64,000 nt of DNA, from the NCBI GenBank assembly GCA_003194525.1, contig NBIV01000028.1, positions 62,001 through 126,000 of the forward strand, given 5' to 3'. This document shows, piece after piece, positions 1 to 17,673 of this stretch. Below the pieces are notes generated by a model. It did not search any database and was not told the origin of the DNA. It was given only the letters and a program-made list of their open reading frames with translations. Origin of the DNA: Gracilariopsis chorda (Eukaryota > Rhodophyta > Florideophyceae > Gracilariales > Gracilariaceae). Position 1 is the first letter of the stretch. Each line of letters starts with the position of its first letter. Made by a program: the position numbers and the translations under genes.

Positions 1-1012
1 TCATGCAGGGCATGAAGCGTTTCGTGAAATACATGGTATATGGTAGAATCAACAATACAGTATGTTCATCCAAGGTGGAGATAACTTGTGCAACCTAGAA
101 TACGTAAATTCAAGCGTAGTACAACCGGAACAGATACAGAAAAAGCAATAAAACTACATTTACTTTGAGTTCTTACAAGTTTGTGGCGTAAAAGTCCAGC
201 AAGACTAAAAAACTGAAATGTGAAAGTGCGCTACCCTAGACAAAAAATTTGGCCTAATAGAGCAGCCACGTGAGCCAGAAAGTTTAATTGAGCTCGATAA
301 AAGAAGAGGCACTAAAAAGGTGTACGATTTGACACATCTTCCGCAATAACCTGTGGAGAAACGCAATGCTTTAACACAAGATGCTGCCCGGTCGGACGTG
401 CCTCAGCCGTCAGTAGAAGGATTTCCTAGAAAGCCCGGGCAGAAGATGGGCTCGATGATCTGAATGATAGAACTCAGGAGACGCTGCTCGAGGGCTGTGG
501 AGCCGGACGGGCAACTGCGTCAGGCGTGGTCAGGGAGCACGCGTAGAGTGTTGGCGGTCGTGTAACACTCCTGTCTTACGGTGCAAAGGAGTAGTAAAAG
601 CTAGTGGGCAGTCTGTATCTTCAACTAGAACAAGAAATTAGTTCGTTTGGTGGGATAACGTCTTCCTTTACTCGTTTCTGGGGGTCGGGGGGTACTGTCA
701 TCCTAAGTAGAACCGCCGGCCCCAAGGTGCACCTCGGCGACGAAGCACCTCGGGAGATATGGGCCAATGGCGGGCTTGCGTACGCACTACCTAAAAAGTA
801 ATTTAAATGTTGGAGAGTGGGTGCAGAACTGACCACGATATGTTTAAACTCGACACTCTTTCCATTTTTCACAAGCAGCGCCCTAGTTGCAATCTTGTGT
901 CACGATTTCATCGCATGACACTTCTTGGCTCTCATGCGTCGATATTGCTTGCTATGATTGCACTACGTATGCCCAATTCGTATTTTGTTAATCAGTTGCT
1001 GCATAAACGCAT
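1..1012. other. Left flank of the Copia element, no gene recognised
   Basis: Only short open frames (under 85 codons) occur here and none resembles a known protein. The 604-801 segment is GC-richer than its surroundings and may be a remnant of an older element, but I cannot assign it. The last five bases (1008-1012) are the left target duplication of the Copia insertion. Confidence 0.5.
1008..1012. repeat. Left target site duplication of the Copia element (CGCAT)
   Basis: The five bases CGCAT immediately before the left LTR are repeated at 17674-17678 immediately after the right LTR. A 5-bp direct duplication is the usual integration footprint of Ty1/Copia integrases. Confidence 0.9.
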
Positions 1013-1309
1013 TGTCGTCAGATTCGTACGTGTCGAATTAAGATGAACGATTGTAATTGAACAAAGGTGCGCGACCCTACCGAACGTAGTACACTTAGAT
1101 AGCTGACAAAGGTGAAAGGTCAGAGTATAGAGGTATACGGAGAAGGAACGGGCGCGTGCAAGTGTTATAATAACAGCGAAGATGCTGAGAGTAAACAAAG
1201 GAGAGGGCCAAGAGAGAGAGAGGGCGGACTCCGGGCAATAGTGCTTAATACTGTGCTCACATTGTATTTGACAGTACTTGTAATTGACATGGAATCTACA
1301 AAACCCACA
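1013..1309 (+). repeat. Copia left LTR
   Basis: 297 bp, begins TGTCGTCAG and ends CCCACA. It matches 17377-17673 over its whole length at about 95% identity. Its left edge abuts the target duplication and its right edge abuts the primer-binding site. Confidence 0.9.
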
Positions 1310-1322
1310 GTTATAGGCCCAG
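1310..1322 (+). other. Copia primer-binding site, half-tRNA type
   Basis: The 13 bases directly after the left LTR read GTTATAGGCCCAG. This is one base from the complement of the anticodon-stem region of initiator tRNA-Met, the site that Drosophila copia uses with a cleaved half tRNA. It does not start with TGG, so it is not a 3'-CCA-end primer site. Assignment of the primer is inferred from this resemblance. Confidence 0.6.
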
Positions 1323-1666
1323 CGCACCCATCATCACTCAACCTTCTCGAACCACTGAGATTGGAGTCAAATACAGACAAATAAATGTGGGGCCAGAGTG
1401 TTCGAATATGGCCGAAAAGGATCCTAGACTATGCCGAAGGAGGCGACAACAGAGCAAAAGGTGTAGCAAACAATTTGTGTCTTACCATCTATTCCTGCAT
1501 GAATTACGGGTATCAACAACTGGTCAATCGATCCGTGGAAGCAGGCGAGATATGTTTGCGCAGCAACACCAACACTTAGAACGATGAACGGATAGACGCA
1601 CTAGAGAAGATTATCAACATCGTCCCCAAGGATTCTGTTTCAGACTCAGTCCGACGCAAAGTTAAG

Positions 1667-2500
1667 ATGATTCAAACGATACACAACTGTATTCGAAAAG
1701 AAAAAGAAAGCTTCAACGCGTACGCAGACAGATTCTATGGCCACGCGCAAGCGTATCTAAACCTATCAGGTGGAACCGAGAACGGACAAGACAGCCAAAC
1801 CTTCGCTATGGTACTGTTGGAGAATGCAAATCTACCAACAATAACGTTTAACAATGTAGTATCTACACTCATTGCAGCCGCCAGAGTCAACACAAGTACC
1901 GTTGATAAGTACCATCAAATAACGTCCACAAAACTCAACATGATGAAAGAAATCTTAGCGAAGATAATGATTCTCAACGTTTCTCAGACAACCCATGATA
2001 ACAACACGATACCCGGAACTATAACAGAGAAATTCAACCTAGAAGAAGTGAAACAGTGCCACGAGATCACCAAGAATATCTTGAATCCGCACAAGTTCGT
2101 AATGACAGAAAAGTCAGAAGGATGTTTTATACGCCTGAGAGATGCAGTGGCAGCAATCAAATACTTACAGATCGAGACCGCTACGGAACAGAAAATCTCA
2201 ACTAACGCAGAAGAAGGAGCCAAGGTCGCGAGGACCATGATAGCCGGAAGGGGCTCAAACACGTATGGATTCCTTCAGAAACGAACATCGTTCCGCAAGA
2301 AAGGGAATTGCTGGGCGTGTGATAAGCCGGATCACCAGTGGAAGGATCGGAAATGCGAGATGCACCCACTAAATAGAAAGAGACCCAATGCGAGACATGA
2401 GGAACAGCCGTGGGCAAAGAAGCATAAGACAGACGAAGACGAGGATCGCACGAACAAGAACCAAGATTCGAAACCAGAGCAGAGCCAGTGTTTTCAGTAA
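1667..2500 (+). pseudogene. Copia gag-like region
   Basis: An open region of 277 codons in the expected gag position. It is rich in Lys, Asn and Thr and ends with a Cys/His cluster (CWACDKPDHQW) like the nucleocapsid zinc knuckle of Copia Gag, followed by a highly charged tail. It is part of the broken element. Confidence 0.6.
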
Positions 2501-3099
2501 GTAGGATCGGTGAGCCCCAACCAGATCCTAATCCGATTTTAGACGAAGGGGCACCTACATCAACTGGAGGCATCATCACAGCGGCACGCATATGCGATAT
2601 ACTCGGAATACAACTCAGCGCAGAACCAACGCGTGAGGAATACTTACAAGGATGGGGTCCGAACGGAGTGAACGCTAAACCAGTTAAATATTCATGGAAG
2701 TTGACCGTAAACGACGAATAATCCAAACCGTTATCCTTGACGTTCGACCTCACCGACGGAGACAACCCACTAATCATCCGACTCGACATCAAGCAATATG
2801 CAGATACCATTAAAAGGGGGAAACAAAAGAAGATCATAATCGAACGACCAGAAGATAAAGGCCCTCGTACCCTCCCGATATGCATTGATACAAGCGGATC
2901 CGACAAACGACTGAAACTACTTATGGTCCCGCAACCAGCCACGATTAGAATTTCCAAGATGTTGCTCACCACCTCCAATCCAAGCCACACAAGAGCTATG
3001 AATACACTCGCAAAACGAATACACAGATACACACACGCCCCGGCAGACCAGGTAAAAGGCATATGCAATGATGCCGGAATCCTAGAAGACACACTCAAG

Positions 3100-3809
3100 T
3101 AAGCCATAGATGCAGTATCGAATACATGCGATATCTGCGCCCAGTCCGGACCGCCAACGGTGTCAAGAAAAATATCACTGACACCTGTCAACAAGCACTT
3201 CAACCAGGAGATACAAATCGACTTCTTTTTCCCAGACATCAACGGCGAGAAACGAACCATACTTCACATCACAGATAAAGGTACAGGGTACTCAGAAACC
3301 GCCATCGTGACAGATGGTCAGCAACAACTATCTTGAAAGAGATAGAGTCTATATGGATATGCAGACACGGCTGTCCACTGAGGGTATCAGCAGACGACGA
3401 ATATAATTCGCCAGCCTTAAGAGCGTTCTGTATCAGCCACAACATAAAATATCGCGCAAGACCAGCAAGAAGACACAATAAGTTGGGAATAGTGGAGCGG
3501 AAGAATCAAACAGTGAAGAGAATCATTGAGAAAATCAACAAGGAAGGATCACAGGAAAATCACCACACTATACTCACAAGAGCAACATTCCTATCCAATA
3601 CCTTCTCGGGCTCGACGATTCTCAGCTCATTCGAGTTAGTAAAAGGCTACAGTCCTTTGTTGCTGGGAATACAAACCACAGTCGTATCAGATGAAATCCT
3701 TGACGCACACAAGGAGCAAGTAGCAACACGAGCGCTACAAAGGCTGTTGAAGACACGATCACCCATTAATACCAGCTCTCATGTACTACTCCAAGGTAGG
3801 AGAGTATAA
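3100..3809 (+). pseudogene. Copia integrase core region
   Basis: Fragments resembling the retroviral integrase core: a strand reading TDKGTGYSET, then DDEYNSPALR and the GIVERKNQTVKR helix, which is the usual NGxxERxNRT-type motif around the catalytic Glu. It lies upstream of the reverse transcriptase part, as in Copia and unlike Gypsy. It belongs to the broken element. Confidence 0.7.
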
Positions 3810-4455
3810 GTTTTCATCAGACCATCAAGAGGGGCAGGTTATTGGACAGAAGCAGAAGTTATCGACCCCAGAGAACACTACGTCCTTACAAGAAGGACAA
3901 GACAAGGCAGAACGATGAAGAATGCATACGAAGACATACGTCTCATACCAGAGAACCCGTTAGGAGCCGAACTCATGCAAGGCACACTCGAAAATGCCCT
4001 CGGATATGAGAATAATTCATCGGAAGAAGGGGGAAGAGAAGAGAATACATCAACAGACATGCTTCCGACGAATAACCACATGATTTCCTCGCAAAGAACC
4101 AACGAAGAAGCCGAACGGAAAGACATTGGGATACACGCAACGAACAGAGCAGAGAAGGATGACACCCCAGCTGAGAAAGAACTGAAGTCCGACAAGCAAA
4201 GAGTTTTGAATGACATATTCAATCACATCGGAAGTAAACAGGTCAAAAGGAGAGAGCTTGCGTTCGCACCGACATTGATTGTAGACGAGGCATTCGAGAA
4301 TGAACACAATACCAATTGGGCAGACGCATACATACCCATTCCGGAACACGAAGTCGGACGGGACGCAAACGTCATAACATCACACGTTGTCTACAAAGTC
4401 AAAACCGATGAAGATGGGGAACGAACAATGAAGGCCAGGATTGTTCCACACGGGA

Positions 4456-4460
4456 ACAGA
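4456..4460. repeat. Left target site duplication of the Gypsy element (ACAGA)
   Basis: ACAGA precedes the LTR at 4461 and is repeated at 15971-15975 directly after the second LTR. This shows the Gypsy element landed inside the Copia sequence. Confidence 0.95.
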
Positions 4461-5268
4461 TGTGGTGCAATGCCCCAAAGGGGAAAAACACCGAAAGACG
4501 TCCGGGATCTTCCTCTCACGAGGTGAACCCAGTTGGGTAGAGCCCTCCCAGAGGTGTCACGGCGAAGCCGGTTTGTAAGACCAGGGACACCTGTCGCGAC
4601 TCGCGCAGGGAGGTGAAGGCGAAGAATCGGTATCCGCGTGAGCGGGGTGTGATCCTCAGTAGAGGTATGTTTCCACGTAAGTGGGGGTGTGTGAGCGGAT
4701 GCGCACACGAGGGCCGCGGATAGCGGGAGGTGCTACCCTAAAAAGGGGAAAGAGGAAGGACGAGTGGGTCGCGAGAGCGACGAGTAGATACGGCAATGCC
4801 GGTGGACAGGACTCCCTATACAGGGCGAAACACCAATATGATTGGAACAATTAGTACTCCCAATGATGGGTCTCCTTTAGATGTGCAAGGGGGGTGAACT
4901 TCCGTACACTACGGTGCTTCCCTCCAAGGAGGAGTTGAGAACACGCGGAGGCGGTAAAGCTCAGAGCCAATTCCCCAGGTTGGGGTCCCTTGTTGGGGAA
5001 GGTTTACTGGTGCGACGGCAGTGCGCCGTCGCACTAAGTACTAGCTTCCCAGAAATGGGTGTGAAAATAATAAATAAAATTAACTAAAATACTCCACATT
5101 CCGTGGCAACATCCACTACTGTGGCCAACCGCCAATTGACCCAAAAACCGTGTCCCACGTGTCCATACCCACCATTGTGGGGCGTAGTTCATATACACAC
5201 TACACAACCGATAATATCGGGAAAGCGTTCAAGTACCCAGAATCCCTCCCTGAGGGCGTTGCACTTCA
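4461..5268 (-). repeat. Gypsy downstream (3') LTR
   Basis: 808 bp, begins TGTGGTGCAA and ends TTGCACTTCA on the plus strand, nearly identical to 15164-15970. It contains more than twenty short hairpins, for example at 4473-4483, 4512-4523, 4528-4537, 4634-4645, 4654-4665 and 4674-4685. Confidence 0.95.
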
Positions 5269-5281
5269 TATCCCCCCCCTT
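5269..5281 (-). other. Gypsy polypurine tract
   Basis: On the minus strand the bases just before the downstream LTR read AAGGGGGGGGATA, a classical purine run that primes plus-strand DNA synthesis in LTR elements. The position agrees with minus-strand orientation of the element. Confidence 0.85.
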
Positions 5282-5325
5282 AAGACGGGAAAACGACCGC
5301 GGGCGCGGAGGATTCCCAGACGAAA

Positions 5326-7113
5326 ATGGGTGATAAAAGCGCGTGCTTTGTCTCCGGTTCTCCGGTAAATCCCTCTGCACCAGAGTCATCAAGCACACAA
5401 ACGACAACAACAGCCACCCTCCAAAAGGGACAAATGAACGACGACAACCATATCAACAGCCACAGCCAACCGCCGAGACTTCTCGGGCGGTACACCACCG
5501 GTTTCCGGTCAGTTCCCCTGCCTCAGGGCGATCGAAATCCGGTACAACCGGGGAATATGGCTGCTGCAGCCGACCATCCCTTCGCACTACCACCTTCGGT
5601 GGTGTCCTCCGGAACCACTCCGGTGTCCAACTGGCCAACCTACAACACCCTGGTGGGGCTCAACCCGATGAATCGGAATCACGCGTCGCGCCTGCGCCTT
5701 GCCCCGTGGTTTCACCCGGTCGCTGTCCTCAATGAGGGGTTGGTCACCGCTTATGCGGATGGTTCAGTCACCCTTCCGGGGGATCTGCCCAGAGCAGTCA
5801 CCACATCGTGGGATTGGCGTCACCGGATTGCGATTCCGCGTCACCACCTCCAAAGAAACTCGGGCGAGACCGTCGCTGCGGCGCAGACCGCGTTGACGCG
5901 GATGGCGTACCAACGGCAGAGCCGGGCTCCATTCGATGTACCGGTCCCACCGGAGTTTGGCTTCGACGTTAGCTACTTCCGCACTCGCGGGGAGATTGGG
6001 TACGGCGAGAACCTGTTCCGCCTCGAGACCCTCGCTTGGAGGAATTTCCCCGCAGCGCGGCAAGAGGCCCTTTGCTGGGAGCGACCTATTATTCGGGCGG
6101 AGTTCAGGTACCTTCCCCGGCAATACCGGTCCAACTTTCTCCAAAACTTCATCCGCTACGAGCGGCGTTGGCGATCCCGATTCGGGTACTTTATCCCGTA
6201 TCAGAACGTGGAGATAGAGCGGATTGCGCCGCCTCACCGACTAGGTCGGTATGTAGCACTCCCCGAGTGGTGGCGCTTCCATGAAGCCTGCCGGGGGTGC
6301 TACATAGAACTCCCGCCGGTACTTACGTACCTCGGTTCGCTGCTCATGCAGGATCCCCGGTCGGGGTTGTGGTCCGTAGTGGTTACGGAGTGGGCGGCCC
6401 GCAGTGCGGCTTATATCCTCAACGAGGCGTACGACCAGTATCGTCTCTGGTTCCTTCAACCGCGTGTGCGGGCAGCGATCCGAAACCTGGATCTTCGCAT
6501 CCCCCTTGGGGGCCAGGCCAACAATGAAGAGGTCCTCCAATTACTTGGGTACATCGACAGTGTTAGCTGGAGTGAGGTCCCGCTGGAGCAAAGCGGTCGT
6601 CTGGATGGCGGCAGCGGTAACACCGGTGGTCCGGGACTCGGTAGAAACACCGCCCTTGCGGGGGATTTTATCTACTTCGACCCCTGGGAGTTCCGAGAAA
6701 TTTCCTCCGAGGAGGCGCGAGAGCTTCGCGATACGCCCCGGCATGTGCCGGAAGACCACCCGGTGGGGTACGTCGATTCTGACGACTACTACCGCGCATA
6801 CGGCGGGGATGACCCAATGGTCGATAACGAACCGGAAGAACCCGGGGAGATGGACGTAGAGGAAACCGGCGCTAGCGCGGAAGCTTTCCCAGAGGGGGTA
6901 TCTCCGGCCGAGCCGGCTGCTGACCCTTCAACGGCAAGTGCCGGACCTTCTATCTCCAGCGGGGTGACGGCGAATGAAAACGAAATCATCGCACGTTTCC
7001 TCCGGGGTGCCGGTCTTAGCGCTGCCGAGGTATCGGGGGATGTCACCACCATGGCGGACGCGTTGGCCTACCGCCTTGCTGGGGGTTACGCCCCGGACGA
7101 TGGGGGTGAGTGA
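5326..7113 (+). CDS. Antisense accessory ORF of the Gypsy element, unknown protein
   Basis: A 595-codon frame with an ATG start, on the strand opposite to gag and pol, beginning 58 bp inside the LTR that would act as its upstream region. I recognise no domain. The N-terminal 80 residues are Ser/Thr/Gln-rich and look disordered. Residues about 110-400 are rich in Arg, Trp, Tyr and Pro and look globular. The last 130 residues are acidic and Gly/Ala/Pro-rich. Antisense extra ORFs between integrase and the 3' LTR are known in some plant Gypsy lineages, but I see no similarity to a named one. The hairpin pattern runs straight through it (for example 5590-5602). A role in the element's life cycle is only inference. 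Confidence 0.6.
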   Translation: MGDKSACFVSGSPVNPSAPESSSTQTTTTATLQKGQMNDDNHINSHSQPPRLLGRYTTGFRSVPLPQGDRNPVQPGNMAAAADHPFALPPSVVSSGTTPVSNWPTYNTLVGLNPMNRNHASRLRLAPWFHPVAVLNEGLVTAYADGSVTLPGDLPRAVTTSWDWRHRIAIPRHHLQRNSGETVAAAQTALTRMAYQRQSRAPFDVPVPPEFGFDVSYFRTRGEIGYGENLFRLETLAWRNFPAARQEALCWERPIIRAEFRYLPRQYRSNFLQNFIRYERRWRSRFGYFIPYQNVEIERIAPPHRLGRYVALPEWWRFHEACRGCYIELPPVLTYLGSLLMQDPRSGLWSVVVTEWAARSAAYILNEAYDQYRLWFLQPRVRAAIRNLDLRIPLGGQANNEEVLQLLGYIDSVSWSEVPLEQSGRLDGGSGNTGGPGLGRNTALAGDFIYFDPWEFREISSEEARELRDTPRHVPEDHPVGYVDSDDYYRAYGGDDPMVDNEPEEPGEMDVEETGASAEAFPEGVSPAEPAADPSTASAGPSISSGVTANENEIIARFLRGAGLSAAEVSGDVTTMADALAYRLAGGYAPDDGGE

Positions 7114-7304
7114 AACCTCTAGTCCAGTTTCCTGGTTCTTCTTTCCCTGGCTATGCAAGTTAGTGTAGTGTAGTATTGTGGGGAGCTAGCTGCTCCCTTG
7201 AATAAACTTTCCCGTTTAGAACGGTGCTTCTCGGTTGAGTTCCCCGTCTTCGACGGACCTTGTCTTGTTATCCTTTCCTTTCGCTCTCCGCTCGCGCGGC
7301 AACG

Positions 7305-8054
7305 TTACCCAACTTGGGCATTTACCAGCGTGGCTGGAGCTGCAGTTCCCGTTTGACGGTGGTATCGCACGACCTGCGACCGTGGGAGGTGTTCCATTGG
7401 CTCCCACGTATCCCCACTGGGGTCGTACCCGTACCAGCGGACGCGGTATTGTAGAATACCATCCTGGTCCCAGGTGTGTCCGACAAGTCGGTCTACTACG
7501 AACTCTCGTTCGTAGACCTGCCGGCCGTGCCGGGTGGTGGTTGTAATCCCTGGCGAGGGTTGCCCGCGGTGCGGTATAATGTCCCTTAGCAGGGTGTTCG
7601 GCGATAACTCCGACGTTGCCGTGCGCTGTCCTAGTGGCCGCTGCTCATGCGGGAAAATATCCCTCAAGAGGGTGTGTGGTGCCACGGTTTTCACCGGCAA
7701 GTCGTTCCCCAGAGGGGTGTCGTTGTTTCCGTCTTCACGGTAGGCCGGGCGAACCGCCAGTCGGCGGGGGACTTGGGTTCCGCTTTCGCGGTTGAGCGCA
7801 CGAACCGCGAGTTTGCGGGAAGATGACCGCTCCTGCGGGATCGGCATTTCCACAATCCCCTGGGGGGTCCCGTGCGACACGGTGATTGGGTGGCAAACCG
7901 CCTCCCTGCCAGGCGCACGAGCGCTCTGCACCATACGTTCCGGCGATGCCGTGGTGTCCCCGGCTACTGACGGGTTGCCTGGGGCTAACTCCGGGACACC
8001 GGTATTTTGGTCAAAATTCCCCTCTGGGGGGTTCCGGCCAGGTGCCGATGACAC
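7305..8054 (-). CDS. Gypsy chromodomain ORF
   Basis: A separate minus-strand frame downstream of the pol polyprotein. Its C-terminal part (about residues 180-240) is a chromodomain: YEREFVVDRLVGH, then YRVRWYGYD and DTWEPMEHL, with the aromatic and WEP positions typical of the fold. Chromodomains define the chromovirus branch of Gypsy elements and tether integration to methylated histone H3, although there they are normally fused to integrase. The N-terminal part is low-complexity and contains two similar copies of a TLLRDI(F/I)PH motif. The start codon is uncertain. Confidence 0.75.
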   Translation of the reverse strand: MSSAPGRNPPEGNFDQNTGVPELAPGNPSVAGDTTASPERMVQSARAPGREAVCHPITVSHGTPQGIVEMPIPQERSSSRKLAVRALNRESGTQVPRRLAVRPAYREDGNNDTPLGNDLPVKTVAPHTLLRDIFPHEQRPLGQRTATSELSPNTLLRDIIPHRGQPSPGITTTTRHGRQVYEREFVVDRLVGHTWDQDGILQYRVRWYGYDPSGDTWEPMEHLPRSQVVRYHRQTGTAAPATLVNAQVG

Positions 8055-8156
8055 CCTTTTCAGGGGAATTGCCGCTGAGCGCAGTGCACCATCTCCGTGA
8101 GGAGGAGCAGCGTCCGGTACGACCGGTTTCGAGCGTGCGATGGCGCGCGTTATTCC

Positions 8157-11100
8157 CTAGTTCCTCGGTTCTTCGCCGCAGCGATGCGGGGGTTGGCGTA
8201 AATTATTCCCCGTAGCGGGGGCTTTGATTCCGTCAACGACGGGAGGCGTTTCCGGTGCTTTCGAGCCAGGGCTTAAAGCTTCGACTGCAGCTTGGCCGCC
8301 TTTTTCCCCAAGAGGGGTGTGGGTATTCCCCTGTGAGGCCGGCGTATCTGGGCGCCCCTTCTCCGCAGGGCGCGGGTCTGATCGACCTGATTGAACCGCT
8401 TCCGCGGGGACTTCCGCCAACGGCGGCTTCGAGGCATCGGGCGATTGCCTTTCCGCTGCTGCGGTATTGGAGTGAGGCTTCTCGTTTTCCCGGGACAAAC
8501 GGTGTATTTGCCGCTTTTGCAGGGCCTGTGCGTCTGGTTCCTGTTGCACAGCACTGCCCGGGAACGGGGGATTAGTGTCGCGTGACATACTCCGTGCTCC
8601 ACGGTCAGTGTTCCGTATGTTACGGTGTGTTTCCCGTTGCGACGGTGATATCGTTCCTCGAAAACGAGTGTTCTCCTCCCCCTCCTTAGACGGAGCGGCG
8701 GGATAAGGGATAACATTCCCCGCCTGGCGGGTATAGATGCGCGCCAGTGGGGCAGACGTGGTAGGGGCGGGCGCTGAGGGGCCCGAATTACCCGGCTGAG
8801 CCGGTGAGTCCGACAGAGTCGGTAGGTCTGAGAGTCCCCGGCTGGGGTGTGGTAGTACCGTAGGTCTAGTACTCCCGGATTGTTCCGGTGTAGCGGAGTC
8901 CGTAGAAACGGGGTTGCCTGGATCCAGGACTACCTCTGACGAGGGAGGAGGGGCGAGGACAACACGATCACGGGAAATCCGTTCGTGCGTGTCCCCCATC
9001 TCTACCACGACAGTGTCGGTGTTAACAGAGATCACCTTGAAGGGTCCATCCGCCACAGGCGAGAGTTTGTGACGCTTCTCCCGTTCCGGGTTGTAGTATT
9101 CCTTCCTGATGAAGACGTAGTTATTTGCCCGAATCGGGGATGGTTTTCCTCGCACGCGAGCGTCAAAATCGCGCTTGTAAGCGGCTTGGGCCCGTGCCAT
9201 AGACTTCCGCGCAGCGGGGACCAGCTTGGAAAGCCATCGCTTCCATTGCTGCCGGTAGATACCCACAGATGGGAAATTGTCCAAGGTAGCTTGGGGTTCC
9301 AGCGCCACAGGCGGGGGTGTTCTAGATAGAACTAACTCGAATGGCGAAACTCCGGTAGTCCGGTGTACCTGCGTATTGTACGCGTAGGTTACCGCATCAG
9401 CGTAGAGATCCCAATTCGTTGGGTGGTCAGCGACGTAGGAACGTAACGCCGCGAGTAACGTCCGGTTAAACGGTTCAACTTGCCCATTACACTGGGGGTG
9501 GTAGGTAGTCGTGAACAAGTTCTTGACATCCAGGATGCGACAAACATCCTGGAAGAACTTGCTCACGAACTGCTTCCCGTTGTCGGAGAGCACCTCCACA
9601 GGGGGACCGTAGACGAAAATCCAGTGCATCACCAGAGCCTGGGCCACCGTGAGAGCGGTTATCCTCCGAAGAGGGACAGTCCGTACCAGTTTAGAAAAGC
9701 GGTCGGTAATGACAAGTAGAAACTTGTTTCCACGTTTCGTGGTGAGTAATGGTCCGAGAATATCGATCGCAATAAACTCGAGCGGCGCCCTTGCGGGGAA
9801 TAGTTTCATCTTCTTCGCATTTTTGCGGAGTTTGACGCGATTCTTCGCGCATTCGCTACAAAACCGCACAGTTGCGTAGCAATCCACCGCCATTGCGGGC
9901 CAATAGAAATCCCTTCGCAGGGTTAGGTAGAGTTTCCTCCCACCTGGGTGACCTCCAATGGGGGCGTAGTGTGATAGATGTAACACCCGCGATTGCAGGG
10001 AATGTGGTACCACAATCTGTGGGCGGGCTTCGACCTTTCTTACGAGGTAGCCTTTGTCGTTTACCCCGAAAGGGAGATCTTCACCACCGTTGATACGGGC
10101 ACGAATTCTCGTACAGAATGGGTCGCCGAATTGTTCTCGGATCATTTCTTCCGGTGATACCGGTACAAAGTATCCCGGTAAAGGGTTCTCAGATTTATCT
10201 CGCGATGCGAGTAGTTCGTCAAAATCAGCATCCTCGTCCCAGGTTTCTGGCCTAGCCTCGACGGCATGTTCCGGATCATCCGGGTCTATAGCCATGAAGC
10301 ATGGGACTTCATCATCCTCCGTTGGGAGTGCTTCCCCACTTGTGGGTAACCGCGATAAAGCGTCGGCCTGAGTGTTCTGCGCACCCTTTTTATAAATGAC
10401 TTGAAAGTCATATTCCGCGAGGCGGAGTCTCCAGCGCATGAGGCGTCCCGACGGGTCGGAGATATTCATCAACCACCTCAATGAGGAATGATCCGTGTAC
10501 ACGGTGAAGTGAATTCCCATAAGGTAGGGGCGCAGAGTGGTCATCGCCCATACGACGGCGAGGCACTCTTTCTCCGATACGGAGTAGTTCCGCTCATGAA
10601 CATTGAGCGAACGTGACCAATAACCAATTGGATGTCGTTCCCCCTCGGGGGTGGTTTGAAAAAGAGCACACCCGACTTGGTAGTCGCTCGAGTCCGTATC
10701 TACGGAGTATGGCAACCCAAGTTTTGGGAGATGTAGGATTGGTGCTGATGTGACAGCCTCCTTCAAGGAGTTAAAGGCTTCTGATTGCTCCCGCGTAAAT
10801 GTTCCCAGTTTTGGGGGGTTGCCCTTTCGCAACAACGCGTTCAGGGGCGCTGCAGTATCCGAAAAGTTCGGGATAAACCGTCGATAGACGTTGACCAGCC
10901 CCAGAAAGGAGCGCAGTTCCGTTTGAGTACGGGGTTCTTTCGCCTCAACGAGGGATTTGACTCGAGCTTTCTCGATCGCTAACCGTCCAGGACGGATAAT
11001 GTGACCCAGATACTTCACAGTATCTGTGAAAAACTCGCATTTCCTCAACTTGAGGGTAATTCCCGCATCGCGGAGTACGGTCAGCACGTCTCGGACGTGA

Positions 11101-12866
11101 GTGAGATGGTCGTCCAACGAGTTGGAGAAGATGATAATATCATCAAGGTAGACCAGACAACTCCGCCACTTAAAGCGGTTGAGTAGAATATCTACTGCAC
11201 GCTGAAAGGTGGCGGGGGCGTTGGTTAACCCAAATGGCATCCGCTTGAAGCGGTACGTTCCTGCATGGCAGGTGAATGCGGTTTTGTCGCGATCCTCCTG
11301 TCTGACAGGTACTTGCCAATATCCCCAATTGGCATCAAGGGCCGTGAACACGGTGGCGTCTCCAAGGGAGTCAATGCACTCGTCCATACGAGGGATGGGG
11401 TACGTGTCCCTAACAGTCACGGCATTGAGCCGGCGGTAGTCGACACAGAACCTCCAGGTTCCGTCAGCCTTTAAAGCCAGTACAACTGGGGATGCCCAGG
11501 GCGATTGAGCGGGCTCAATCACACCTGCGCGGAGCATCTTGTCCACCTGGGACTGCTCCTCTTCCCGAGCTTTCGGACCTGCCCTGTAAGGGGGTTGTGC
11601 AACCGGTCGCGCACCGGGGATTAAATCGATCCGGTGTTCCGTTGCATCAATCTCGCCAAGCGAGCCATCCCACATTGTGGTGAATTCCCGTAACATAGTA
11701 CGGAGTTTGTCGCGGTGCGACTCTGGCACGTGGCTGAAGTCCAGCGCTTCAAGTGCTTTTTCCGGATCAATCCGGTCATTGCTCGATGGAGCATTGTCCT
11801 GTGGAACAGGTGTGGTTCGCAATTCCGAGTTACTCGGTATGTTCGACGCTGAAGTAGTGGTTTCCTCCCCCTCCTTAGACTTGACGTCTTCGGACGGCGG
11901 GGTGAACTCCTCAGAAGAGGTGGTAACTCCGAGTACATCGGCGGCTGTCATCTTCGTTGGCAGCATTCCCATAGGATGGGGGGTTACACTCCCAATTACT
12001 TGGTGTTTGACCAGATACTGGGGGTGTTTGCCAAGGTTGGCAACCAATATCCGGAAAGGAACATCCGGGGAAATGGAGACAATTCCATTAGCCAGCGCCA
12101 GCTGGGATTTCCCGTACAACGAGGCGAGGGGTTGTATAACCCGAAGACCGTGTTGACGGGAATTTACCTGTACCCAGACTTGGGACTCAGCCGGTATAGA
12201 AACCGAGGCAGCGACGCGGAGCTTGGTGGACTCGCGGGACGCGGGCGGTGGTTCCTGCGCAGCAGGGAGCGGAACTTGTTTCCGAGAGGACCGCTTTAGC
12301 GGGCGGCGAACAATCGGAACCGACGATCCGTCGTCAAGTTCTACACGCCTGAGGCGGGGCCTGATTGCGTCGACAAATCTGTCGCAGTAATCACATCCCA
12401 GTATGACTGGTGCTGCCAGTGAACGGCAAACGATGAAGTCCAACTTCACCACAGATGTACCAAGTCTCACGACGAGGTCCACTGTGCCCACCGTTTGTAA
12501 CGGATTGTTGTTCGCATCCGAAATGTCGGGGACCGCGTCAGAGCGGATACGCGACCGCACAAGCGGGGGTAACAATGATTCCACGACAAAGTTGGGGCCT
12601 GCACCTGTATCCAGGACGGTGAGAAACCTCACCATAAACTGGGGGTCAAGGCCAAGGTCGGCATAGACCTTATAATTGCGCTTGGCCAAGACCAAGACTC
12701 TACCGGGAATCCGGGGATTTTTACTCCGTATCCACGGGCGACGCAACACACCGAGGTGCGCAGAGTCCGCGTCAGCGGTGTCTTTCCTCGAGAGGACTTT
12801 CACCGGGGAGCGAGGCGAGGACGCCTCGGGCGCCAACAGCCTCGTTTTTGAGGACGCCTCTCCCAA
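8157..12866 (-). CDS. Gypsy Pol polyprotein (protease, RT, RNase H, integrase)
   Basis: About 1,569 codons. Visible in order: an aspartic protease (LDTGAGPNFV); reverse transcriptase with the YLDDIIIFS active site; RNase H beginning DTDSSDYQVGCALFQ; an HHCC zinc finger (HLSHYAPIGGH ... CSECAKN); and an integrase core with IAIDILGP, LSDNGKQF and NGQVEPFN carrying the D-D-E triad. A GPY/F-like module (LSPVADGPFKVI) follows, then a long Ser/Pro-rich tail. Integrase after RNase H is diagnostic for Ty3/Gypsy. The frame differs from gag, as is common in the family. Confidence 0.92.
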   Translation of the reverse strand: MGEASSKTRLLAPEASSPRSPVKVLSRKDTADADSAHLGVLRRPWIRSKNPRIPGRVLVLAKRNYKVYADLGLDPQFMVRFLTVLDTGAGPNFVVESLLPPLVRSRIRSDAVPDISDANNNPLQTVGTVDLVVRLGTSVVKLDFIVCRSLAAPVILGCDYCDRFVDAIRPRLRRVELDDGSSVPIVRRPLKRSSRKQVPLPAAQEPPPASRESTKLRVAASVSIPAESQVWVQVNSRQHGLRVIQPLASLYGKSQLALANGIVSISPDVPFRILVANLGKHPQYLVKHQVIGSVTPHPMGMLPTKMTAADVLGVTTSSEEFTPPSEDVKSKEGEETTTSASNIPSNSELRTTPVPQDNAPSSNDRIDPEKALEALDFSHVPESHRDKLRTMLREFTTMWDGSLGEIDATEHRIDLIPGARPVAQPPYRAGPKAREEEQSQVDKMLRAGVIEPAQSPWASPVVLALKADGTWRFCVDYRRLNAVTVRDTYPIPRMDECIDSLGDATVFTALDANWGYWQVPVRQEDRDKTAFTCHAGTYRFKRMPFGLTNAPATFQRAVDILLNRFKWRSCLVYLDDIIIFSNSLDDHLTHVRDVLTVLRDAGITLKLRKCEFFTDTVKYLGHIIRPGRLAIEKARVKSLVEAKEPRTQTELRSFLGLVNVYRRFIPNFSDTAAPLNALLRKGNPPKLGTFTREQSEAFNSLKEAVTSAPILHLPKLGLPYSVDTDSSDYQVGCALFQTTPEGERHPIGYWSRSLNVHERNYSVSEKECLAVVWAMTTLRPYLMGIHFTVYTDHSSLRWLMNISDPSGRLMRWRLRLAEYDFQVIYKKGAQNTQADALSRLPTSGEALPTEDDEVPCFMAIDPDDPEHAVEARPETWDEDADFDELLASRDKSENPLPGYFVPVSPEEMIREQFGDPFCTRIRARINGGEDLPFGVNDKGYLVRKVEARPQIVVPHSLQSRVLHLSHYAPIGGHPGGRKLYLTLRRDFYWPAMAVDCYATVRFCSECAKNRVKLRKNAKKMKLFPARAPLEFIAIDILGPLLTTKRGNKFLLVITDRFSKLVRTVPLRRITALTVAQALVMHWIFVYGPPVEVLSDNGKQFVSKFFQDVCRILDVKNLFTTTYHPQCNGQVEPFNRTLLAALRSYVADHPTNWDLYADAVTYAYNTQVHRTTGVSPFELVLSRTPPPVALEPQATLDNFPSVGIYRQQWKRWLSKLVPAARKSMARAQAAYKRDFDARVRGKPSPIRANNYVFIRKEYYNPEREKRHKLSPVADGPFKVISVNTDTVVVEMGDTHERISRDRVVLAPPPSSEVVLDPGNPVSTDSATPEQSGSTRPTVLPHPSRGLSDLPTLSDSPAQPGNSGPSAPAPTTSAPLARIYTRQAGNVIPYPAAPSKEGEENTRFRGTISPSQRETHRNIRNTDRGARSMSRDTNPPFPGSAVQQEPDAQALQKRQIHRLSRENEKPHSNTAAAERQSPDASKPPLAEVPAEAVQSGRSDPRPAEKGRPDTPASQGNTHTPLGEKGGQAAVEALSPGSKAPETPPVVDGIKAPATGNNLRQPPHRCGEEPRN

Positions 12867-12883
12867 AGGGGAGACTCCCTCAG

Positions 12884-15058
12884 TTAGTTTTCCGCCTTCG
12901 GCGGTGGGTTGGTTTCCTCGACAACGAGTGCTTCATCCCGTTGACGGGGGTTTCTATCCGCATAAGCGGGGGTTGCAACGGATGGTTGCGTGATCTCCCG
13001 AATCGGGGTGTATGAAGCTTGCCGCGCACGCGGGGTCTGTGGTAGGGCGTGAGAAAAGTCCGTTTTAGCACGGAGGTAGGAAGCCGTCGGGACGGAACGT
13101 TTCTCCTCTGGAGTGAGGGCCTCATAATTTGCCACCACCTTGGCCATATCCTTCAGTGAACAAATACACTGAGGAGAGGTATGGCCATGGGCATAGCACA
13201 GGTGGCAAATGAGAGCCAGCACCGCGACACGCGGATTATTATTCCGAGTATCGGAGAAGCGAACCGCAGGGCGGGTGTCAGTCCATCCAGGCCGTTGATA
13301 ACGGGATTGACCGTTTGAAAACGGGAGTCGTTGGGGTTGAACCCGACTGTTACCACCGTATAGAACGGGATCTTCTGTTCCCGTATCATGGGTCATCTCC
13401 GTCGTTGACGGTAACTCACTGGTGGGTATCGACACACCATCCCCCTGCGCTAAATGCACGGTATCAAATCCCTGTCCAGGGTTCCCATCCGCGGTGAGCG
13501 GGAGAGAGGAAGCTTCGCTTTCCAGCAACAACGCCTTGGCGGATTTAGACCGATTGTTCGGAGTTCTTGCACGAAGTGCATCCCCTTCCGCTCGAGCGTG
13601 TTGGACCAGCTCGAGGTAGGTGATCCTTCGCTCGTCCTCCCGATAACGGGTAACTAAACTCCGGATTGCCGGGTCAAGACCATCAATGAACATGGTACTG
13701 CGCTCCCCAGCGGGGTATACGTTACCACATCTGTGGAAAGCCTTGTTAAGGCGCACCGAGTAATCGGTCTCGGTCTCTCCAGCACGCTGGCGTGTATCTC
13801 GCAAAGCGAGGATAGCCTGCTGAATAGCGGTGTTGGTGGCGTAGGAGCGCAGAAGATACTGCACAGCCTCCGGCCAGCAAGTAACTCCTCCCTCGGAGGC
13901 GCGAGAAGATCCTCGGACAGAGGTGTATTGGTCCTCGGCCACTCCCCGTAAGAAATACGGTAAAGCCAAATAGGCTTGTCCCTCATTCATACCGAGGATA
14001 TCGGCCTCCGCTACAAAGCGGGATAGGAAATCCAGTACTAGGACTGGGTCCTCTCCAGTAAAATACTGGTTGCGGAGCGAGAGCTGCATTCGCTTAATGC
14101 ATTCTCGCACCTTTCCCGTACCACGGGGCGTACGTCCAAGTGACGAATCTTCAAGCCGGTAGTACCGGTATGATAAAAGCTTCCGGTAATCCGGGTTTGT
14201 CGGTTTCAATTCCCGGAGACCGGGGTGTCTTCTCCCCTTCTGGCGGGTTCGGACCACACCTTCAGTGGCCGATGACCGCTTCGAGCGGGAGGAGTAGCCT
14301 CGCTTCTCGTCCTCCGAGTCGGAGTCCGAGAAGCTCGAGCTAACCGAATGGTTTCGGGGTGAGTCCGACGATGTCGAAGAATCGGAGTCCGAATATTTTC
14401 GGTGATGTTTCCGTCGGTGACGGCGTTTCTTCTTCCCAGCAAGCTGGTCGTTGTGCGATGCCTCGTTTACCGGATCACCCGGGGATGGTTTGTCCATGAG
14501 GACGAACTGCTCCAGCGTCTCCAGGCGGGCACCAATCCGATCAAATCGGGCTTCAACTCCTTCGATGAAGGCGGCGGGTTGTCCCAAACTCTCCAACACG
14601 GAGTTGACGTCAGACCGTAAAATACGGAGCTCCTCGGCGACCTCCTTTACGGGGGTTGCCGAGACCACCTCTTGGAGGGATTTTAGTTCCCCTACAAGGG
14701 TGTCATGGGCGGTCCACAGAGCGCGGACCTGGGATTCCAGGGAAGTCCCCTGGGGGGTGTTATCACCCGTTCCACGGGGGCTTGAAGCCGCGACAGCGGG
14801 AGCAGGCCGGGGTGCCTGGGGCACTGCGGCAACAGCCGGAGTCGATGCTGCATTCCCCTGCGGGGGTGATAACGAGGGCAAAAGGAGGTTCCGGGGTTCC
14901 CGGTCGGGGGTATCATTCCGCGATGAAGCGGCGCCAGCACGGCTGGAACTTGTCCGTATAGGGATACGGGGTACGAACCGAACTTCGGAAGAGTCCGCGT
15001 TGTCGCGGGAGCGACTACGCGTAACCACTGGCTCCGCGTCGGAGGGATTTCTCGACAT
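12884..15058 (-). CDS. Gypsy Gag
   Basis: A 724-codon frame with an ATG start 90 bp downstream of the primer-binding site. The N-terminal third is disordered (Ser/Arg/Pro-rich). A central helical part (about residues 290-480) has the look of a Ty3/Gypsy capsid, including YFLRGVAEDQY and LNKAFHRCG. Near the C-terminus a CCHC zinc knuckle (CHLCYAHGHTSPQC, spacing C-2-C-4-H-4-C) indicates a nucleocapsid. Pol follows 17 bp later. Confidence 0.85.
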   Translation of the reverse strand: MSRNPSDAEPVVTRSRSRDNADSSEVRFVPRIPIRTSSSRAGAASSRNDTPDREPRNLLLPSLSPPQGNAASTPAVAAVPQAPRPAPAVAASSPRGTGDNTPQGTSLESQVRALWTAHDTLVGELKSLQEVVSATPVKEVAEELRILRSDVNSVLESLGQPAAFIEGVEARFDRIGARLETLEQFVLMDKPSPGDPVNEASHNDQLAGKKKRRHRRKHHRKYSDSDSSTSSDSPRNHSVSSSFSDSDSEDEKRGYSSRSKRSSATEGVVRTRQKGRRHPGLRELKPTNPDYRKLLSYRYYRLEDSSLGRTPRGTGKVRECIKRMQLSLRNQYFTGEDPVLVLDFLSRFVAEADILGMNEGQAYLALPYFLRGVAEDQYTSVRGSSRASEGGVTCWPEAVQYLLRSYATNTAIQQAILALRDTRQRAGETETDYSVRLNKAFHRCGNVYPAGERSTMFIDGLDPAIRSLVTRYREDERRITYLELVQHARAEGDALRARTPNNRSKSAKALLLESEASSLPLTADGNPGQGFDTVHLAQGDGVSIPTSELPSTTEMTHDTGTEDPVLYGGNSRVQPQRLPFSNGQSRYQRPGWTDTRPAVRFSDTRNNNPRVAVLALICHLCYAHGHTSPQCICSLKDMAKVVANYEALTPEEKRSVPTASYLRAKTDFSHALPQTPRARQASYTPIREITQPSVATPAYADRNPRQRDEALVVEETNPPPKAEN

Positions 15059-15147
15059 GAGAAAATACCGTTACGACGGGAAACGATCACGGAACTTCCG
15101 GTGAATGAAAACAAACCTCGTAGGAGGGAAAACAAAAACCGATTCTA

Positions 15148-15160
15148 GGTCGGGAGACCA
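15148..15160 (-). other. Gypsy primer-binding site
   Basis: On the minus strand the sequence TGGTCTCCCGACC begins three bases after the upstream LTR. It starts with the TGG complementary to a tRNA 3'-CCA end. I cannot say which tRNA it matches. Confidence 0.8.
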
Positions 15161-15163
15161 CTT

Positions 15164-15970
15164 TGTGGTGCAATGCCCCAAAGGGGAAAAACACCGAAAG
15201 ACGTCCGGGATCTTCCTCTCACGAGGTGAACCCAGTTGGGTAGAGCCCTCCCCGAGGTGTCACGGCGAAGCCGGTTTGTAAGACCAGGGACACCTGTCGC
15301 GACTCGCGCAGGGAGGTGAAGGCGAAGAATCGGTATCCGCGTGAGCGGGGTGTGATCCTCAGTAGAGGTATGTTTCCACGTAAGTGGGGGTGTGTGAGCG
15401 GATGCGCACACGAGGGCCGCGGATAGCGGGAGGTGCTACCCTAAAAAGGGGAAAGAGGAAGGACGAGTGGGTCGCGAGAGCGACGAGTAGATACGGCAAT
15501 GCCGGTGGACAGGACTCCCTATACAGGGCGAAACACCAATATGATTGGAACAATTAGTACTCCCAATGATGGGTCTCCTTTAGATGTGCAAGGGGGGTGA
15601 ACTTCCGTACACTACGGTGCTTCCCTCCAAGGAGGAGTTGAGAACACGCGGAGGCGGTAAAGCTCAGAGCCAATTCCCCAGGTTGGGGTCCCTTGTTGGG
15701 GAAGGTTTACTGGTGCGACGGCAGTGCGCCGTCGCACTAAGTACTAGCTTCCCAGAAATGGGTGTGAAAATAATAAATAAAATTAACTAAAATACTCCAC
15801 ATTCCGTGGCAACATCCACTACTGTGGCCAACCGCCAATTGACCCAAAACCGTGTCCCACGTGTCCATACCCACCATTGTGGGGCGTAGTTCATATACAC
15901 ACTACACAACCGATAATATCGGGAAAGCGTTCAAGTACCCAGAATCCCTCCCTGAGGGCGTTGCACTTCA
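15164..15970 (-). repeat. Gypsy upstream (5') LTR
   Basis: 807 bp, matching 4461-5268. I find one substitution (15253 against 4550) and one missing A in an A-run. The substitution falls in the loop, not the stem, of a CCTC/GAGG hairpin. Confidence 0.95.
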
Positions 15971-16272
15971 ACAGAGACAAGGAAAAAGAGGACATCAGGA
16001 AAGACTCCGCCACAGTACAACTGGATATCATTAGGCTCCTCATCTCGATCACAACATTCCTAGGCTTCAGACTCGCAGCTATCGATATCAAAGGTGCATA
16101 CCTTCAGAGCGGTCTAATAAGAAGATCCGTATTTGTTCGCCTACCCCGAGAATGGAACGGAATGCGCGGTGTGTTGTGGAAGCTAACGAAACTTCCCTAC
16201 GGTATAGTGGAGGCAGGAAGGCAGTGGATGAAGACCGTAGAAGAGTGGATGCTCACATACGGAGGCCTATAA
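15971..16272 (+). pseudogene. Copia reverse transcriptase, first part
   Basis: This sequence resumes the Copia immediately after the ACAGA duplication. It encodes the Copia RT signature AAIDIKGAYLQS, then WKLTKLPYGIVEAGRQW. Copia RT continues in degraded form to about 16640. It is part of the broken element. Confidence 0.75.
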
Positions 16273-16623
16273 CGCATATTCGGCATTGGGCAACTGTATA
16301 TCAAACGAGAAAACAAGAAGATCATACTGCTAGTCGCCAAGCTCACTGAAGACTTTCTCATGGCCGGGAACGTGAAGGAAATGAAGTATTTCATCTCAAA
16401 AATAGGAAAGAGGTTTGTCATCGGGAAGGCAGTGGTGGATTAGAAGATCCTATTCAGCGGATGCGAAATTCAACAGGACATGAATGGGTCGATAACTATG
16501 TCCATGCATAGATACATGTAAAGGCTGAAAATTATCCACCTCGATCGAGCAAGGCGTAAACAAATACTCTCCAAGGTGACGGAAAACGAAAAGAAGTAAT
16601 TTAGATCTCTAGCGGGGGCTTTA

Positions 16624-17335
16624 TTGTATCTGGGTAATGTAGTAATGCCACAAGCATCTCTCATCGCGTCGCTTATGCAACAAAGAATATTTAGACTCGC
16701 GGTTCAGGACATCATCGACGCAAATACATCAGTTACCGAACTTCTCCAAATGAATCCCGTCTTACAATTCATTAATCCTACACAAATACAAGATGCCGCT
16801 ATCGTAACATTCTCAGACGCTGCACATGCAGGAAAAGAAAGAAGCTATGGACAGTCAGGGATGCTACAAGGACTGAAGATTAAGACGCCGAACAGAACCA
16901 TATTCCACACTATCGACTGGTCCAGCCATAAACAGAAGAGGATTTCGTATTCTGCGTATGGCGCAGAAGTTCTTGCGTGTTCCTTTGCTGATGACAGGGG
17001 TTTCTACTTGAAAAACGCAATGAGATCGATGTTCGGCAACTGTTCGATAAATCCATGAAGTGGTTGTAGATTCTAAGGCATTATGGGACACCATAACTAC
17101 ACTGCACGAAGGAAACGAATATAGACTGAGACCGACCGTACAACGTATCAGGAATAGCTTCGAATCCAGAGAGCTTGACAAGTTCATGTGGATCCAAGGG
17201 CATCGTAACCTAGCCGACGGTCTAACAAAACGAAACTACGACATCCAGAGACATATCGACCCTCCCTGTTACACTGGGATATGGAAAGACAACCACGAGC
17301 CGGAAAAGGAAGTTAACAGCAGAAGCTGGATATAG
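16624..17335 (+). pseudogene. Copia RNase H region
   Basis: Fragments typical of the Copia C-terminus: FSDAAHAGKERSYGQSGM (RNase H first Asp), SSHKQKRISYSAYGAEV (the Ser/Glu helix), VVDSKALWDTI (second Asp), and WIQGHRNLADGLTK near the end. They lie just before the polypurine tract and right LTR, as expected. Confidence 0.75.
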
Positions 17336-17368
17336 TGAAGCTAGAGTTGACCAGTGATCCGGTCAAAT

Positions 17369-17376
17369 AAGGGGAG
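17369..17376 (+). other. Copia polypurine tract
   Basis: AAGGGGAG directly precedes the right LTR, in the position used for plus-strand priming. Confidence 0.8.
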
Positions 17377-17673
17377 TGTGGTCAGATTCGTACGTGTCGA
17401 ATTAAGATGAACGATTGTAATTGAACACAGGCGCGCGACCCTACCGAACGCAATACACTTAGATAGCTGACAAAGGTGAAAGGTCAGAGTATAGAGGTAT
17501 ACGGAGAAGGAACGGGCGCGTGCAAGTGTTATAAGAAAAGCGAAGATGCTGAGAGTAAACAAAGGAGAGGGCCAAGAGAGAGAGAGGGCGGACTCCGGGA
17601 AATTGTGCTTAATACTGTGATCACATTGTATTTGACAGTACTTGTAATTGGCATGAAACCTACACAACCCACA
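17377..17673 (+). repeat. Copia right LTR
   Basis: 297 bp, begins TGTGGTCAG and ends CCCACA, about 95% identical to 1013-1309. It is followed at once by the CGCAT duplication (17674-17678). Confidence 0.9.

What the first reader, a model, noticed from the sequence alone, without database searches (positions are those of the whole stretch)
4461..15970. Gypsy element studded with mini-hairpins along its whole length
Perfect short palindromes of the form 4-5 bp stem, 3-5 nt loop recur about every 20-40 nt throughout this 11.5-kb element, and almost nowhere in the Copia around it or in host genes. In the 116 bp at 12892-13007 there are five: CCGCC-TTC-GGCGG, CTCG-ACAA-CGAG, CCCG-TTGA-CGGG, CCGC-ATAA-GCGG and CCCG-AAT-CGGG. 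The 808-bp LTR holds more than twenty (for example CCAC-GTAA-GTGG at 4674 and GTCGC-GAGA-GCGAC near 4771). They occur in LTRs, in gag and pol, and in the ORF on the other strand, so they do not follow one coding frame. The only LTR substitution falls in a loop. Possible meanings (inference): a beaded RNA fold for packaging or protection, a code for a bound protein, or a trace of repeated palindrome gain.
Basis: seen in the sequence. Interest (0 to 1): 0.9.

Follow-up and report, generated by a model that had tools for sequence, protein, structure and literature searches.

The report
Retrotransposon written in tiny DNA hairpins
A mobile genetic element in a genome that looks like a red alga's carries several hundred tiny, exact self-complementary hairpins along its whole length, in a layout that differs between its relatives, which suggests a structural code that its genes have had to accommodate.

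Summary
In the element (4461-15970) perfect 4-bp stems with 3-5-nt loops occur 4.15 times per 100 nt, against 1.11 in the rest of the window. The signal is a defined object: CC at the stem base, 4-5 Watson-Crick pairs in all, loop of 3-5, GG; 218 against 15.3 expected. Pairing just outside is avoided; wobble pairs are far less enriched (1.8-2.3x) than perfect ones (12.5x). Synonymous-codon shuffles remove most of it. Two related gypsy families, 65-67% identical over a pol part, carry it too; in one of them CC sits one pair further in. The rest of the window, eight random samples and a 1.5-kb stretch of another gypsy do not. Positions mostly turn over between families. Unshared mutations break 32 hairpins and make 8, so no mutational generator is evident. 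Purifying selection on stems is suggested in family A (p=0.008), not seen in C; an earlier stronger result was confounded and is withdrawn. Most likely: a family-specific code read on a single-stranded form of the element by its own binding protein, like dispersed packaging signals. Function and strand are inferred.

The parts
4461..15970 (-). Ty3/gypsy chromodomain retrotransposon (family A), sense strand is minus; carries the hairpin array throughout
   Evidence: LTR pair, RT/RNase H/integrase/chromodomain by Pfam, ACAGA duplication and LTR ends
4461..5268 (-). LTR (3' LTR in sense orientation), 808 bp, 33 hairpins of stem >=4/loop 3-5, 23 CC-based
15164..15970 (-). LTR (5' LTR in sense orientation), 807 bp, one substitution and one 1-nt indel from the other
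4456..4460 (.). target-site duplication ACAGA, left copy (right copy 15971-15975)
12884..15058 (-). gag ORF (724 aa); 55 CC-hairpins; 34 homologs, 6 of them named Agarophyton chilense, 9 (others) with Pfam PF03732
8157..12866 (-). pol ORF (RT, RNase H, integrase); 89 CC-hairpins
7305..8054 (-). ORF with chromodomain; 22 CC-hairpins (29.3 per kb)
5326..7113 (+). antisense ORF (595 aa), no Pfam family passes its cut-off; homologs in Gracilariopsis, Gracilaria and in family C; 37 CC-hairpins
12892..13007 (.). example block with five perfect mini-hairpins (four CC-based, one CTCG-based)
4461..15163 (.). hairpin array counted once (one LTR plus interior): 235 CC-hairpins at 223 centres, mean spacing 47.9 nt, 8 of 222 spacings below 15 nt; largest gap 220 nt (9417-9638)
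15148..15160 (-). probable primer binding site TGGTCTCCCGACC, 3 nt inside the 5' LTR
   Evidence: sequence; the assignment is by convention (recalled), tRNA not identified
5269..5281 (-). polypurine tract AAGGGGGGGGATA next to the 3' LTR
   Evidence: sequence; assignment by convention (recalled)

Best explanation
The element carries a dense, family-specific array of exact mini-hairpins, one per 48 nt on average for the CC-based class: CC at the base, 2-3 further Watson-Crick pairs, a 3-5-nt loop without a motif, GG, then an unpaired flank. Shown: the object, its exactness, its presence in LTR and coding parts and on both coding strands, its presence in three related families with two layouts, its absence from the controls taken. 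Inferred: the array is kept by weak distributed selection on density, and is read on a single-stranded form (genomic RNA or first-strand cDNA) by a nucleic-acid-binding protein of the element itself, most plausibly Gag with its CCHC knuckle (or the antisense-ORF protein), for self-selective packaging and condensation, as dispersed packaging signals do in RNA viruses.
For: CC-based hairpins 14x (218/15.3) while GG-, GC- and GT-based ones are 1.0-1.4x, so base stability alone does not explain it. Pairing just outside is avoided in A (21 vs 56 expected) and B (2 vs 12.7). Family C has one extra pair outside CC (xCC type 8.6x, CC-terminal 4.6x) against A (4.9x, 14.1x) and B (4.4x, 16.0x). In A the flank is strand-asymmetric in LTR, gag, pol and chromodomain ORF and, more weakly, in the antisense ORF (p=9e-11 overall), as expected of a single-stranded reader. 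Double changes at paired sites between families restore pairing in 79 of 161 cases against 35.8% in controls, p=4e-4, neighbouring pairs not being independent. Unshared mutations break 32 and make 8 hairpins, so something other than present mutation keeps them. In the part of A without recombination between subfamilies shared variants avoid stems (1 shared/13 single against 43/56, p=0.008). Gag has C-x2-C-x4-H-x4-C (read by eye from the translation).
Against: Purifying selection is not seen in family C (6 shared/18 single in stems against 37/148, p=0.59), nor in the first 1400 positions of A1 or A2 (p=1.0 each), and B has too few variants. The stronger test was confounded by a recombinant segment; the p=0.008 could share that problem if the shared variants are clustered. 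In C, counted as CC-terminal hairpins, unshared gains equal losses (6 and 5). Loops carry no motif, unlike the known packaging signals. Low G-U tolerance does not suit an ordinary RNA fold. Most hairpins are not at the same place in related families. One-mismatch relics are enriched about 2.3x in B and C and 1.4x in A (summed), which selection for perfection alone would not give. The flank bias of A is not shared by B or C. No binding, expression or probing data.
Confidence: 0.4

Rival explanations
1. Mutational origin: reverse transcriptase (or a host polymerase) folds back on its nascent strand with a 3-5-nt loop and copies 4-5 nt, writing new mini-palindromes; they persist by chance and recombination.
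For: Positions turn over between families; Watson-Crick-only pairing is natural for a copying process; shared variants do not avoid stems in C; relic excess in B and C; in C, CC-terminal gains equal losses (6 and 5); gains overall (8) exceed the 3.4 expected.
Against: Unshared gains number 8 against 32 losses in ungapped places, and the ungapped CC-type gains printed differ from the nearest copy by 1-2 substitutions, not by a copied arm; copying would not make pairing just outside rarer than chance (21 vs 56) nor prefer CC about tenfold over GG; residues under stems are nearly as conserved as others; 0-2 compensated double changes per pair of close copies.
Confidence: 0.2
2. Shield against small RNAs or hybridisation: a hairpin every ~48 nt makes many sense and antisense fragments of 21-24 nt self-paired, so that host silencing RNAs load or pair poorly.
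For: Needs exact pairing on both strands, which would explain why wobble gives little benefit; covers LTR, gag, pol and antisense ORF alike; density rather than position is kept; many near-identical copies indicate a successful family.
Against: Does not explain CC at the base, avoidance of extra pairs, the one-pair shift in C, or the strand-asymmetric flank of A. No small-RNA data.
Confidence: 0.15
3. Generic genome-wide RNA structure (as in viruses with genome-scale ordered RNA structure), of which short GC-based hairpins are the visible part.
For: Mean folding z of -0.88 (+) and -0.96 (-) in 36 element windows against -0.36 to +0.15 in three control stretches.
Against: Wobble little favoured, stems of 7 or more hardly enriched (6 vs 3.0); GG-based stems of equal stacking energy barely enriched; extra pairs avoided.
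Confidence: 0.1
4. The hairpins act on first-strand cDNA or other DNA of the element (pausing, strand transfer, protection, integration complex) rather than on RNA.
For: Near-perfect Watson-Crick requirement; DNA folding parameters give larger z in the element (-1.65 and -1.39) than RNA ones, with controls near 0 (+0.18 to -0.22); the slight excess of G-T pairs is on the plus strand, the sense of first-strand cDNA (summed 79 vs 34.3, against 50 vs 27.9 for A-C).
Against: The wobble difference is small and differs between families; T.G and C.A may be mutational neighbours of C-G pairs. I know of no cDNA-binding protein of this kind (recalled).
Confidence: 0.1

Closest known systems
Dispersed packaging signals of RNA viruses (MS2 and others; PMC6281560, passages seen)
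   Same: Many stem-loops spread through the genome with a shared recognition feature, whose precise sequences vary around it.
   Different: There the recognition motif described for MS2 is in the apical loop and a 5' bulge; here the loop is free and the fixed part is the stem base, pairing is almost strictly Watson-Crick, and there are over 200. Binding is untested.
Genome-scale ordered RNA structure (recalled; the term was searched, one paper in the listing uses it)
   Same: Structure excess along a whole genome that synonymous choice encodes.
   Different: Wobble little favoured, narrow range of stem length, CC base, extra pairs avoided.
Ty1/Ty3 cis-acting RNA elements (PMC4974528 and PMC11381356, passages seen)
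   Same: Ty3 is a gypsy relative with Gag-RNA recognition; its packaging sites are said not to be precisely defined, UTRs and POL are both implicated, and scattered sites are considered possible.
   Different: Ty3 nt 429-4979 are reported dispensable for retrotransposition when proteins come in trans; no mini-hairpin array appears in the passages seen.
Repeated hairpin elements (bacterial REPs, sponge mitochondrial hairpin elements; listings only)
   Same: Short palindromes in high number.
   Different: Those are copies of related sequences; here stems vary widely and only the architecture is shared.

Membership tests
Ty3/gypsy LTR retrotransposon with chromodomain | RT, RNase H, then integrase, then chromodomain | tested here: met
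   RVT_1, RT_RNaseH, Integrase_H2C2, rve in pol ORF; Chromo in the next ORF
Ty3/gypsy LTR retrotransposon with chromodomain | LTRs, target duplication, PBS, PPT | tested here: met
   PBS and PPT read by convention, tRNA not identified
Dispersed packaging signals | many stem-loops spread over the genome in excess of chance | tested here: met
Dispersed packaging signals | shared recognition motif in the loop | tested here: not met
   460 hairpins: loop composition near background, the one departure being A at 40% in the first place of triloops; the shared motif is in the stem base
Dispersed packaging signals | bound by the element's own coat protein | not testable with these tools
Genome-scale ordered RNA structure | folding energy below shuffled controls along the genome | tested here: met
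   modest
Genome-scale ordered RNA structure | G-U pairs accepted on the RNA strand | tested here: not met
   three families summed: sense-RNA wobbles (AC+CA on +) 50 vs 27.9 (1.8x), plus-strand wobbles 79 vs 34.3 (2.3x), other mismatches 232 vs 132.2 (1.75x), perfect 381 vs 30.5 (12.5x)
Fold-back template-switch palindromes | new palindromes appear as clustered copied changes at about the rate of loss | tested here: not met
   8 gains, 32 losses in ungapped places over A, B and C-type; ungapped CC-type gains printed differ by 1-2 substitutions; exception: CC-terminal hairpins in C, 6 gains and 5 losses
Transposed hairpin repeats (REP-like) | copies of one sequence | tested here: not met
   the commonest 4-nt arm next to the loop makes up 32 of 460

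The most novel reading that the evidence does not exclude
A lineage of red-algal gypsy elements has evolved a whole-genome structural code: hundreds of exact mini-hairpins whose base-pair layout is specific to the family (CC at the base in A and B, one pair further in for C), read on a single strand by a co-evolving element protein so that each family recognises its own nucleic acid, with protein-coding sequence on both strands rewritten to fit.
Probability: 0.35. Interest if true: 0.93.

Novelty: categorically new. Interest (0 to 1): 0.82.

Why it matters
If right, it is a genome-long structural code in a retroelement, and it differs between sister families in a way that can be tested with 12-nt oligonucleotides. 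It bears on how LTR retrotransposons pick their own RNA, which is described as not clearly defined in Ty1 and Ty3 (passages of PMC4974528), and on how much structural constraint a protein-coding sequence can bear. If instead it is mutational, it would point to an unknown palindrome-writing activity.

Tried and rejected
MK-type test with fixed differences between subfamilies A1 and A2 first seemed to show strong conservation of synonymous sites in stems. Searches showed that A1 and A2 differ mainly in one recombinant segment (L009 positions 1 to about 730, ~24% diverged, few hairpins), so the test was confounded and is withdrawn; inside the segment CC-stems differ at 13 of 70 and 6 of 52 sites against 122 of 508 and 122 of 546. 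The replacement is weaker: p=0.008 in A beyond position 1400, nothing before it, none in C, no power in B.

Codon-phase test: CC-hairpins are about equally enriched in the three phase classes (6.1, 8.3, 6.8), so it separates little. Four-fold sites: stems less changed in 3 of 6 directed comparisons at P<0.02, in the others P 0.05-0.26; driven by sites that are stems in both families. Rfam: no match at gathering thresholds. Viral contigs: no relatives. Structure prediction of the antisense ORF: switched off. Seven literature searches showed no account of such an array in the papers listed (open-access library only, 10-20 titles listed per search).
Full report
What is there. Positions 4461-15970 hold a complete-looking Ty3/gypsy element in minus orientation: two LTRs of 808 and 807 bp differing by one substitution and one indel, target duplication ACAGA, gag, pol with RT, RNase H and integrase, a chromodomain ORF, and a 595-aa ORF on the other strand. 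The genome has 91.3 Mb in 1081 contigs. Named homologs of the antisense ORF come from Gracilariopsis chorda and Gracilaria domingensis (2 of 5 hits) and of gag from Agarophyton chilense (6 of 34 hits), so the host is probably a gracilarialean red alga; this was not tested further. The family is large: 41 LTR matches listed, 40 of them near 100% identical (40 of 1776 candidates scored), and 131 pol matches (131 of 3944 candidates scored).

The observation. Perfect stems of at least 4 bp with loops of 3-5 nt are 3.2-3.9 times more frequent than in dinucleotide shuffles. The excess is confined to short loops and is greatest for stems of 4-5 bp (295 vs 121 and 137 vs 29; 6 bp 22 vs 9.1; longer 6 vs 3.0). 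Resolved by the outermost two bases, CC-based hairpins are 218 against 15.3 expected, CT 4.4x, CG 3.0x, the rest 0.5-1.7x. CC...GG spans of 11, 12, 13 and 14 nt with up to three inner pairs all formed are 52, 92, 61 and 17 against 6.1, 6.3, 1.8 and 1.0; spans 9 and 10 are 2.2x and 2.6x; 15 is 6 vs 1.3 and longer ones are 3 or fewer. By the slightly different count there are 235 CC-hairpins at 223 centres.

The object is exact. One step outside the CC/GG base, pairing occurs 21 times against 56 expected from the marginal composition, and 34 against 62 two steps out. Perfect inner pairing is enriched 12.5x over the three families, plus-strand wobbles 2.3x, sense-strand wobbles 1.8x, other mismatches 1.75x (summed). 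In family A T.G (25 vs 8.0) and C.A (13 vs 5.8) stand above the rest. Flanks are strand-specific in family A: T before in 113 of 235, A after in 35 of 235, where equivalence of strands would make these equal (p=9e-11); the bias is present in LTR, gag, pol and chromodomain ORF and weaker in the antisense ORF. B has another flank bias and C none that is clear.

It overrides coding. Shuffling synonymous codons within each ORF reduces the counts from 55, 89, 22 and 37 to 5.1, 13.1, 3.7 and 7.1 (200 shuffles each), which is still 1.3-1.9 times the dinucleotide expectation. Proline, glycine, arginine and threonine are over-represented under CC-stems. In the pol part, amino-acid identity to related families is nearly the same under stems as elsewhere (0.66-0.75 against 0.68-0.72; lower in 5 of 6 comparisons). 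Density is lower in pol (18.9 per kb) than in the LTR (28.5 per kb).

Relatives and controls. Two other gypsy families, B and C, are 65-67% identical to A and to each other over the aligned pol part. Both are enriched (hairpins of stem 4, loops 3-5: 2.4-3.1x in 30 loci). In B, as in A, CC is terminal (16.0x; A 14.1x); in C one pair lies outside CC (xCC type 8.6x, CC-terminal 4.6x) and then pairing is avoided (12 vs 22.7). C carries its array through gag, pol and a stretch with an antisense ORF 42% identical to A's. Controls: rest of window 0.7x, eight random 5-kb samples 1.1-1.2x (32 against 26.5 by the looser count, summed), the flanking unit 1 against 1.9, and L077, a 1.5-kb RT stretch of another gypsy, 0 seen of 0.4 expected and 16 stems of 4-5 bp with loops 3-5 against 17. 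Only this one other gypsy family was sampled, and only in a short piece.

How it evolves. Between families most hairpins are at different places: 24 of 140 shared centres for A against B, 2.4 by chance; for CC-hairpins 13, 10 and 10 shared centres against 0.07-0.21 by chance, of which 10, 7 and 5 have the same 5' arm. Where both partners of a pair have changed, 79 of 161 are again complementary, control 35.8% (p=4e-4). Among near-identical copies, unshared variants in ungapped places break 19 and make 2 hairpins in A, 6 and 3 in B, 7 and 3 in C (C-type; 5 and 6 for CC-terminal ones in C); random single-base changes would give gain-to-loss ratios of 0.09, 0.10 and 0.17. Without selection such a bias would erode the array, so either selection maintains it or a generator acted that is not visible in these variants. 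Some 'gains' may be old states kept in one copy, and post-insertion mutation may dilute an RT-linked process. Direct evidence of selection is mixed: in A beyond alignment position 1400, shared variants are 1 in stems and 43 elsewhere while singletons are 13 and 56 (p=0.008); before it there is none (p=1.0 in A1 and in A2); in C 6 and 37 shared, 18 and 148 single (p=0.59); B too few.

Reading. The layout is too specific for generic folding and the exactness does not suit an ordinary RNA fold; the flank asymmetry of A points to a single-stranded reader; the layout shift between families resembles a recognition code. I therefore favour a distributed signal read by an element protein, and leave open RNA or cDNA. 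The mutational, shielding and generic-structure rivals are not excluded. Packaging determinants of Ty1 and Ty3 are described as not clearly defined (passages of PMC4974528 and PMC11381356), and a 2026 survey of inverted repeats in 118,019 genomes does not contain the word retrotransposon in its main text (term search of PMC13155455).

Noticed in passing
L009 1-730 (window 9501 to about 10230): Two subfamilies of A differ mainly by a ~24% diverged segment whose divergence falls off over the next ~600 nt, a sign of recombination between element lineages; L035 has a different breakpoint.
   Followed up: partly
5326-7113 (+): Antisense ORF with 50% and 47% identical proteins in Gracilariopsis chorda and Gracilaria domingensis and 42% in family C; no Pfam family passes its cut-off.
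   Followed up: partly
12884-12932 (-): The pol frame is open from about 12932, overlapping the end of gag by some 50 nt in another frame, so frameshifting is likely; two mini-hairpins (12892, 12917) lie in the overlap.
   Followed up: no
1003-17666: The element lies within a unit bounded by 300-nt repeats 16.4 kb apart (94% identical); its ORFs look Copia-like by eye but Pfam names neither of two tested.
   Followed up: partly
CC-hairpins of family A, third pair: The third base is G in 49%, 58% and 71% of hairpins of spans 12, 13 and 14 (29% at span 11), giving CCG...CGG.
   Followed up: no
L041 (family B): B has its own flank bias (A at -2, G at -1, A at +1) unlike family A (T at -1, G/T at +1).
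   Followed up: no
G000:C119:222930-223753: An LTR copy 90% identical to A lies there; it would allow a non-coding test of stem conservation but could not be fetched.
   Followed up: no
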